Below are positions 3,705 through 4,397 of a DNA stretch of 12,659 bases, one piece after another (position 1 is the stretch's first letter; each line of letters begins with the position of its first letter). This stretch comes from Caldilineaceae bacterium (GTDB lineage Bacteria > Chloroflexota > Anaerolineae > Caldilineales > Caldilineaceae). The stretch covers positions 1-12,659 of the forward strand of contig WGCB01000816.1 of the NCBI GenBank assembly GCA_015494005.1, given 5' to 3'. The translations under genes and the position numbers were made by a program. The notes beneath the pieces were generated by a model. That model was given only the letters and a program-made list of their open reading frames with translations, was not told the DNA's origin and did not search any database.

Positions 3705-3734
3705 AAAAAGGTCCTGGAATCCCAGGGCCTTTTT
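3705..3734. terminator. Bidirectional intrinsic terminator between smpB and the selenoprotein gene
   Basis: A 13-bp stem (3705-3717 with 3722-3734) closes a 4-nt AATC loop. It has only one G-U wobble (3712/3727), and its outer five pairs are A-T. The plus-strand transcript therefore ends in a U run, and the minus-strand transcript does too because the left arm is an A run (3704-3709). It lies between two convergent genes and can serve both. Just upstream is an imperfect direct repeat, CTGAACGTAAAAAG (3679-3692) and CTGAACGCAAAAAAG (3696-3710), the second overlapping the left arm. Confidence 0.9.
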
Positions 3735-3782: not shown

Positions 3783-4382
3783 TCACCCGGTCATCTGCTC
3801 CTGGCTTCCCCAGGGCGGCTGGATGAACGGCTCCGGCTCCAGGCCCAGCCCCTCGGCCACCCGGGTGATGTAGTTGAAGTAGGCGATGACCTGGGTGGCG
3901 TCGTGGATGGCCCGGTCGTCCAGGCCCAGGGCCCGCAGACGGTCCAGGTCCTGGGGCCCCACGTCGGTCATCCGCAGGGTCAGCTTGGCCGCGTGCTCGC
4001 ACAGGGCCCGGTCCAGGGCGGAAAGGGGCGCCTCCCGCCAGTTTCGGGCCACCTGGTGGACGAAAGCATCCGCCTCCTCTGGCGTGGGGAAGAGCTCGGC
4101 GACCTCGGCACGGAGGTCGTGGGCATGGGCCTGGGTTCAGTAGGCGCAGCCCAGCTCCCAAGCCACCACCGTGGCCAGGAGCTCCCGCTGCACCCGGCTC
4201 AGGGGCGAGCGTCCGTGCATGATGGCCCCGTAGAGCTCCATGCTGGTCTTCAGCACCCGGGGATTCTGGCTCATGACGTGGACGATCTGCCAGATGCGTC
4301 CGGCCCGCCTCACAGCCTTCTCCAGCTCTCGCTTGAGCAGCCCCGTGGCCTCTTCCATGGGGATCAGGCGAATCCAGGGCAT
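3783..4382 (-). CDS. Predicted selenoprotein: AhpD-like / peroxidase-related enzyme with CxxU active site
   Basis: One 199-residue protein is read through an in-frame UGA (4137-4139). Upstream of the UGA lie residues 1-81, with QRELLATVVAWELGCAY; downstream, TQAHAHDLRAEV and the conserved end AYFNYITRVAEGLGLEPE. These are the two halves of a carboxymuconolactone decarboxylase/AhpD-fold peroxidase-related enzyme. The UGA falls on residue 82, exactly the second Cys of the family motif CxxCxxxH, giving C79-A-Y-U82-T-Q-A-H86. Glu67 lies 12 residues before C79, the spacing of Glu118 and Cys130 in mycobacterial AhpD. A SECIS-like hairpin follows. The frame is otherwise undamaged. ATG 4382 is preceded by AGAGGAGG (4387-4394) 4 nt away. 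The likely role is a cytoplasmic thiol/selenol peroxidase; electron donor and substrate are unknown. The alternative is a Cys-to-stop nonsense mutation, which the hairpin argues against. Confidence 0.82.
4100..4119 (-). promoter_or_regulatory. Predicted bacterial SECIS element
   Basis: In the minus-strand mRNA, a 7-bp perfect stem (CGACCUC pairing with GAGGUCG) closes a 6-nt loop CGUGCC. The loop begins 24 nt after the UGA at 4137-4139. Published bacterial SECIS rules, as I recall them, ask for an upper stem of at least 4 bp, a small loop with a G in its first two bases, and a UGA-to-loop distance of roughly 16-37 nt. All three are met, and the GU in the loop resembles the GU that SelB contacts in E. 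coli fdhF. The element is inside the coding sequence, as in other bacteria. Confidence 0.75.
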
Positions 4383-4397
4383 AGCGCCTCCTCTGAA

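What the first reader, a model, noticed from the sequence alone, without database searches (positions are those of the whole stretch)
3783..4382. A selenoprotein hidden as two ORFs: AhpD-like enzyme with CxxU active site
The two minus-strand reading frames (4140-4382 and 3783-4136) are in the same frame, separated only by one UGA. They are the N- and C-terminal halves of one peroxidase-related/AhpD-fold protein. The UGA is at residue 82, the second Cys of CxxCxxxH, the only position where Sec would be expected. In mycobacterial AhpD this residue (Cys133) is, as I recall, the peroxide-reactive one. Glu67, C79 and H86 match the other catalytic positions by spacing. The gene has an excellent Shine-Dalgarno, an intact frame and its own terminator. 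Standard annotation would give two fragments or a pseudogene. AhpD-like selenoproteins have been reported in metagenomic surveys; I do not know of a studied one in this setting.
Basis: partly seen in the sequence, partly recalled or inferred. Interest (0 to 1): 0.92.

Follow-up and report, generated by a model that had tools for sequence, protein, structure and literature searches.

The report
Selenium-containing AhpD-like redox enzyme gene
A gene that standard software would split in two at a stop codon is very probably one gene whose stop codon is read as the selenium amino acid selenocysteine at an enzyme's active site; this is a known type of bacterial selenoprotein, and its exact reaction is still inferred.

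Summary
On the minus strand, 3783-4382 is one 199-residue frame broken only by UGA at residue 82 (4137-4139), where Cys relatives have the second Cys of CxxC.

The evidence for selenocysteine is strong. UGA stands there in 14 of 14 orthologues in the window's family and in 80 of 80 loci returned from GTDB genomes (best 80 of 261; 8 genes are in both sets). A six-pair hairpin, loop 24 nt after the UGA, fits the published bacterial SECIS rules and pairs fully in 82 of 86 distinct sequences. L90 (CTC) and E93 (GAG) are the only codon-fixed positions among 55 near-invariant ones. The genome has selA, selB and selD. selC was not found in this 820-contig draft but is in 42 of 46 genomes searched.

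It is a new member of a known kind: AhpD-like CxxU selenoproteins (COG2128/TIGR01926) were reported in 2005 and are listed in reviews. Added here: a clade with Sec in all 89 sampled rows, mixing Chloroflexota and Gemmatimonadota, and a codon-level SECIS signature. Peroxide reduction is inferred, not shown.

The parts
3783..4382 (-). AhpD-like selenoprotein gene, 199 codons read through the UGA, plus terminal TGA
   Evidence: One frame; TIGR01926 above cut-off; 14 of 14 family orthologues and 80 of 80 GTDB loci with the same architecture
4137..4139 (-). UGA read as selenocysteine, residue 82 (CAYU motif)
   Evidence: TGA conserved; Cys in distant homologues aligns here
4101..4118 (-). Predicted bacterial SECIS hairpin: stem GACCUC/GAGGUC, loop CGUGCC, 24 nt from UGA to loop; an outer C-G pair (4119, 4100) is also predicted
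   Evidence: Folds at -14.5 kcal/mol for 48 nt; six pairs in 82 of 86 distinct sequences; codon fixation
4387..4392 (-). Shine-Dalgarno AGGAGG, four bases before the ATG
   Evidence: Read from the sequence
3713..3726 (-). Possible intrinsic terminator after the gene (weak)
   Evidence: One hit, shuffles give a mean of 0.9

Best explanation
The locus is one intact, apparently stand-alone gene for an AhpD-fold (TIGR01926/COG2128) selenoprotein. The hairpin just after the UGA recruits SelB with Sec-tRNA(Sec), so the UGA inserts selenocysteine at residue 82 instead of ending translation (inferred from conservation, RNA structure and gene content; no experiment here). In the helical protein the selenol of Sec82, beside Cys79, Tyr81, His86 and Glu67, most likely attacks a peroxide (or disulfide), forms a Cys79-Sec82 selenenylsulfide and is reset by a dithiol donor. 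That last step is inferred from Cys-type AhpD proteins; substrate and reductant are unknown.
For: UGA at this codon in 14 of 14 family orthologues and 80 of 80 returned GTDB loci, with E67, C79 and H86 in 80 of 80. In a phylum search of 400 genomes, 19 of 25 matches have TGA there and 6 have Cys. Hairpin meets the published SECIS rules (rules read in passages; values). Six pairs in 82 of 86; L90 CTC 86 of 86, E93 GAG 86 of 86, R91 CGG or CGT 86 of 86; of 55 near-invariant positions only 90 and 93 are codon-fixed. selA and selD above cut-off, selB on two contigs that overlap exactly by 90 bp, selD itself with in-frame UGA. AhpD fold: model pLDDT 94.7, best match 6k40. The five proton-relay residues of PA0269 (Glu36, Cys48, Tyr50, Cys51, His55; CAYC) match E67, C79, Y81, U82, H86 in spacing, and PA0269 reduces H2O2 weakly (PMC3141380, passages).
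Against: selC was not found in this assembly (one search scored 150 of 846 candidates). Folding energy alone does not stand out: 620 of 5000 synonymous shuffles and 16 of 200 dinucleotide shuffles fold as well. Covariation of the one variable pair rests on three well-supported independent pairs, p 0.25. In a protein database 15 of 28 full-length relatives show Trp and 2 Arg at this position; Trp is probably a table-4 reading of TGA, but I could not check the DNA. No gene neighbour supports a peroxidase role.
Confidence: 0.9

Rival explanations
1. Pseudogene or sequence error: the TGA is a fresh nonsense mutation or a miscall, and the downstream half is not made.
For: The gene looks like two ORFs under the standard code, and the window is from a fragmentary draft.
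Against: The same TGA is in 14 of 14 family orthologues and 80 of 80 other returned loci; both halves keep the same GC3 and catalytic residues.
Confidence: 0.02
2. The UGA is read as Trp (genetic code change or plain read-through), not as Sec.
For: 15 of 28 full-length database relatives show Trp there.
Against: 6 of the 9 other genes checked in the window end in TGA, as does this gene. The position is Cys in distant homologues. The Sec genes and the codon-fixed hairpin would be unexplained.
Confidence: 0.03
3. It is a selenoprotein, but the reaction is not peroxide reduction: for example a disulfide or selenol exchange partner of another enzyme, or a reductive dehalogenase like Bmp8 on the same fold.
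For: The model matches debrominase Bmp8 (6ohi, E 7.6e-5, TM-scores 0.72 and 0.76), and so does the family profile (E 4.6e-5). No conserved neighbour points to a peroxidase system.
Against: The nearest solved structures are named alkyl hydroperoxide reductase AhpD (6k40, 34% identity) and peroxidase-related proteins; Bmp8 is 14% identical. Bmp8's chemistry is known to me by name only; one search listed no paper on it (8 of 1,657 shown).
Confidence: 0.3

Closest known systems
AhpD-like selenoprotein, COG2128/TIGR01926, CxxU (Sargasso Sea 2005, PMC1088965; AhpD-like 1 in GOS, PMC2398784; listed with MCB9421940.1 in PMC9312934 and PMC13188914)
   Same: Same family model (TIGR01926 above cut-off), same CxxU motif, in-frame UGA and downstream SECIS.
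   Different: No difference found; MCB9421940.1 itself was not available for alignment. This member is from a draft genome whose relatives carry Caldilineaceae names.
Cys-type TIGR01926 proteins with solved structures (6k40, 2oyo, 2pfx, 3c1l, 2prr)
   Same: Same fold (Foldseek E 3.7e-10 to 8.8e-9 for the best chains) and same active-site spacing.
   Different: Cys instead of Sec at position 82; 21-34% identity.
AhpD of Mycobacterium tuberculosis and AhpD-like PA0269
   Same: Glu, Cys, Cys and His of the proton relay match in spacing; PA0269 has CAYC where this protein has CAYU (PMC3141380, passages).
   Different: Not a member of the AhpD model TIGR00777 (14.6 against 191.95 bits); no link to AhpC seen.
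NF041238, AhpD-related CFYUT (seleno)protein
   Same: Related domain with CxYU motif (E 1.4e-12).
   Different: 47.5 bits against a cut-off of 175; the model is 357 positions long.

Membership tests
AhpD-like selenoprotein (TIGR01926/COG2128, CxxU) | TIGR01926 score above the curated cut-off | tested here: met
   117.5 bits against 81.8
AhpD-like selenoprotein (TIGR01926/COG2128, CxxU) | In-frame UGA at the second position of CxxC, Cys in homologues | tested here: met
AhpD-like selenoprotein (TIGR01926/COG2128, CxxU) | Bacterial SECIS: loop 3-9 nt, upper stem 4-16 bp, G in the first two loop positions, 16-37 nt from UGA to loop, MFE at most -7.5 kcal/mol (rules from PMC13188914) | tested here: met
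   Loop 6 nt, stem 6-7 bp, G at loop position 2, 24 nt, -14.5 kcal/mol for 48 nt and -8.1 for the 18-nt hairpin alone
AhpD-like selenoprotein (TIGR01926/COG2128, CxxU) | selA, selB, selD in the genome | tested here: met
   selA 361.4 and selD 328.7 bits, both above cut-off. selB in two contig pieces, each below the cut-off alone (175.4 and 163.3 against 242.25 bits), with an exact 90-bp overlap
AhpD-like selenoprotein (TIGR01926/COG2128, CxxU) | selC in the genome | tested here: inconclusive
   Not found in the 87.9% complete draft; 42 of 46 genomes of the order have it above cut-off
AhpD-like selenoprotein (TIGR01926/COG2128, CxxU) | Sec present in the protein | not testable with these tools
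   Needs 75Se labelling or mass spectrometry
AhpD-like selenoprotein (TIGR01926/COG2128, CxxU) | Alignment to the catalogued representative MCB9421940.1 | not tested
   Sequence not held by the tools under that name
AhpD proper (TIGR00777) | Score above the curated cut-off | tested here: not met
   14.6 against 191.95 bits
NF041238 AhpD-related CFYUT (seleno)protein | Score above the curated cut-off | tested here: not met
   47.5 against 175 bits

The most novel reading that the evidence does not exclude
An AhpD-fold enzyme lineage that is obligately selenium-dependent: it has kept Sec with no return to Cys in any sampled member while passing between Chloroflexota, Gemmatimonadota and other phyla; its in-gene RNA hairpin shapes the protein itself (Val or Ile at residue 94 goes with the Asp89 codon); and it carries out a reaction that Cys AhpD proteins do poorly or not at all.
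Probability: 0.3. Interest if true: 0.6.

Novelty: new member of a known kind. Interest (0 to 1): 0.42.

Why it matters
The gene shows how annotation hides selenoproteins: of 120 listed database relatives, 69 align only from residue 84 or 85, just after the UGA. The clade is a clean natural case in which Sec appears fixed, so it suits a test of what selenium buys an AhpD-fold enzyme. The codon signature (CTC, then CGG or CGT, then GAG two codons on) could help to find such genes in high-GC genomes. In the two searches made for it (all 5 and 20 of 156 papers listed) I saw no title on this protein in Chloroflexota or Gemmatimonadota.

Tried and rejected
Pseudogene, sequence error and reading as Trp were considered and rejected (see rivals). 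Gene neighbourhood was tried as a clue to function: apart from three clusters that are this gene's own halves or its antisense frames, no ORF cluster occurs in more than 10 of 81 loci; the ORF calling was crude and some loci are short. Folding energy alone did not single out the SECIS. Covariation alone did not reach significance on the tree. C394, the highest-scoring hit to the selB model, is EF-Tu. The eight candidate selC loci of G000 that were fetched hold ordinary tRNAs, and a relative's selC as DNA query gave nothing better than E 0.2. (this protein against selD) was uninformative. Literature: searches (7 of 7 listed; 15 of 50 listed) showed no title on the biochemistry of a Sec AhpD-like protein; (8 of 9 listed) showed no paper naming 6K40; all these are listings only.

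Full report
What is there. The minus strand of 3783-4382 encodes one 199-residue protein with a single in-frame UGA at residue 82. AGGAGG stands four bases before the ATG, and GC3 is alike on both sides of the UGA (0.90 and 0.92). The read-through protein is a TIGR01926 'peroxidase-related enzyme' above the curated cut-off and has a CMD domain. The active-site motif is E67, then C79-A-Y-U82, then H86. Neighbours are smpB (convergent) and a yigZ/IMPACT gene (divergent). No operon is evident.

Conservation of the UGA. A search of 46 genomes of the order, the window's own included, found 16 with a match at E 1e-20 or better. Fourteen of these are close orthologues (13 relatives at 56-71% identity to the window) and 14 of 14 have TGA at this codon; the other two matches are distant Cys proteins. 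A scan of the GTDB collection (84,980 species) found 261 related stretches, of which the best 80 were returned. In 80 of 80 the codon is TGA, and E67, C79 and H86 are kept in 80 of 80. Eight of the 80 are the same genes as in the family set. The scan's peptide patterns favour this clade, so I also searched 400 genomes of the phylum, which does not use those patterns: 22 genomes and 25 matches at E 1e-25 or better. Nineteen matches have TGA at this position and six have TGC or TGT, all six from one genus. One of the nineteen (L194) also has two TAG codons in its frame. Distant Cys homologues align Cys with residue 82. In the protein database search, 120 of 128 hits were listed: 28 are full length, and the 7 with Cys at this position are at most 43% identical. 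Fifteen others show Trp, two Arg, one Gly, one Ser and two a gap. Trp fits gene calls made with table 4, and 91 of the 120 rows are C-terminal pieces; but the DNA of those rows was not seen, so true Trp or Arg variants are not excluded.

Tree. A tree of 116 rows (101 Sec, 15 Cys) has an 89-row clade that holds the window and is all Sec (support 100/99), inside a 94-row all-Sec clade (97/84). Left out were L191, L204, L030, L032, eight family rows that duplicate GTDB loci, and P0121. L003 was counted as Cys but is very distant and its place is unsure; several deep branches are long. Chloroflexota and Gemmatimonadota rows are interspersed, with two rows labelled Actinomycetota and one each Krumholzibacteriota, Planctomycetota and Pseudomonadota. 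This suggests transfer between phyla, but draft-genome labels may be wrong.

SECIS. The RNA after the UGA forms GACCUC-CGUGCC-GAGGUC, with the loop 24 nt after the UGA, at -14.5 kcal/mol for 48 nt. This meets each rule of the bacterial SECIS model quoted in PMC13188914 (passages). Of 94 collected sequences 86 are distinct. All six pairs form in 82 of 86, and the loop starts with CGG or CGU in 86 of 86. Leu90 is CTC in 86 of 86 (31% of Leu codons elsewhere in these genes), Glu93 is GAG in 86 of 86 (67% elsewhere), Arg91 is CGG or CGT in 86 of 86 (42% elsewhere, while CGC is 44% elsewhere and 0 here), and Val94 is GTC or GTT in 67 of 68 (46% elsewhere). Of 55 positions with at least 95% one amino acid (Met and Trp left out), only 90 and 93 are codon-fixed; the next is 0.95. 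The third base of Asp89 and the first base of residue 94 covary: GAC with GTC or GTT 66, GAT with ATC 15, other 5. On the tree this is about eight changes with three well-supported independent pairs, p 0.25, so I treat it as suggestive. In an alignment of 14 of the 86, chosen to include mismatched cases, 96.4% of cells pair against at most 50% in slid versions; 20 of 500 shuffles do as well. Results against: 620 of 5000 synonymous shuffles and 16 of 200 dinucleotide shuffles of the window are as stable, the mean z over the 86 is only -0.75, and 1196 of 20000 synonymous shuffles of the window make all six pairs with a CGK loop. The case for the SECIS is therefore the repeated codon fixation, not the energy.

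Machinery. The window's genome (820 contigs, 87.9% complete) has selA above cut-off, cut by a contig end; selD above cut-off, itself with an in-frame UGA in the context AGUASK; and selB on two contigs, C145 with the first 136 residues and C300 with the rest, whose ends overlap exactly by 90 bp. selC was not found. In the 46 genomes of the order, selC is above cut-off in 42 and selA in 42. I take its absence here as a gap in the draft.

Organism.

Fold and mechanism. An AlphaFold2 model from 26 aligned sequences, with Cys in place of Sec, has mean pLDDT 94.7. The nearest solved structures are D. radiodurans AhpD (6k40) and 2pfx, 2oyo, 3c1l and 2prr, also by sequence profile. In PA0269 the proton relay is Glu36, Cys48, Tyr50, Cys51, His55 in a CAYC motif, and the protein reduces H2O2 weakly; in M. 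tuberculosis AhpD it is Glu118, Cys130, His132, Cys133, His137 (PMC3141380, passages). E67, C79, Y81, U82 and H86 match PA0269 in every spacing, with Sec in place of Cys51. I infer that the Sec82 selenol reacts first and Cys79 resolves it. Substrate and reductant are unknown. Bmp8, an AhpD-fold debrominase, is a weaker match, so other reactions stay open.

What is known. AhpD-like CxxU selenoproteins of COG2128 were found in the Sargasso Sea data (27 sequences; PMC1088965, passages) and in GOS (299 Sec and 902 Cys sequences for AhpD-like 1; PMC2398784, passages), and COG2128 is in the table of the 2006 bacterial survey (PMC1794560, passages). Reviews list it with MCB9421940.1, under TIGR01926 (PMC13188914, passages) and under COG2128 (PMC9312934, passages). 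The present gene belongs to that kind. NCBIfam's CFYUT selenoprotein model is related, but the gene is not a member.

Verdict. It is a well-supported selenoprotein of a known family. The additions here are the Sec-only clade as sampled, its spread over phyla, and the codon-level SECIS signature. The enzyme's reaction is inferred.

Noticed in passing
L068:6577-7740 (G000 contig C274): selD of the window's genome has its own in-frame UGA (AGUASK context), so SelD is very probably a selenoprotein too.
   Followed up: partly
L069 and L070 (G000 contigs C145 and C300): selB is split over two contigs whose ends overlap exactly by 90 bp.
   Followed up: yes
L002:1501-2022 (G000 contig C254): The same genome has a distant Cys-type relative (30% identity, CLYC motif).
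   Followed up: partly
P0002-P0016: Database relatives with Trp (15), Arg (2), Gly (1) or Ser (1) at residue 82 among 28 full-length rows; Trp is probably a table-4 reading of TGA, Arg is unexplained.
   Followed up: no
L104, L118, L168, L175: The four of 86 sequences whose six-pair stem has one mismatch; in L104 and L118 residue 94 is Leu.
   Followed up: partly
L186-L188, L190, L192-L194, L197, L199, L200, L202-L204: Thirteen more distant Chloroflexota relatives (36-44% identity) also have TGA at this position; several keep a CTCCGT run after it.
   Followed up: partly
G041 (relative genome): No selA match, and only a below-cut-off selC match, in a 99% complete genome; it may have lost the Sec trait.
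   Followed up: no
selA of genus g3 genomes such as G018, G020: The selA match breaks into two parts in one frame near model position 246, which suggests an insertion in SelA of that genus.
   Followed up: no
window 3783-3785: The gene's terminal stop is also TGA in 14 of 14 family orthologues, so the same mRNA uses UGA both as Sec codon and as stop.
   Followed up: no
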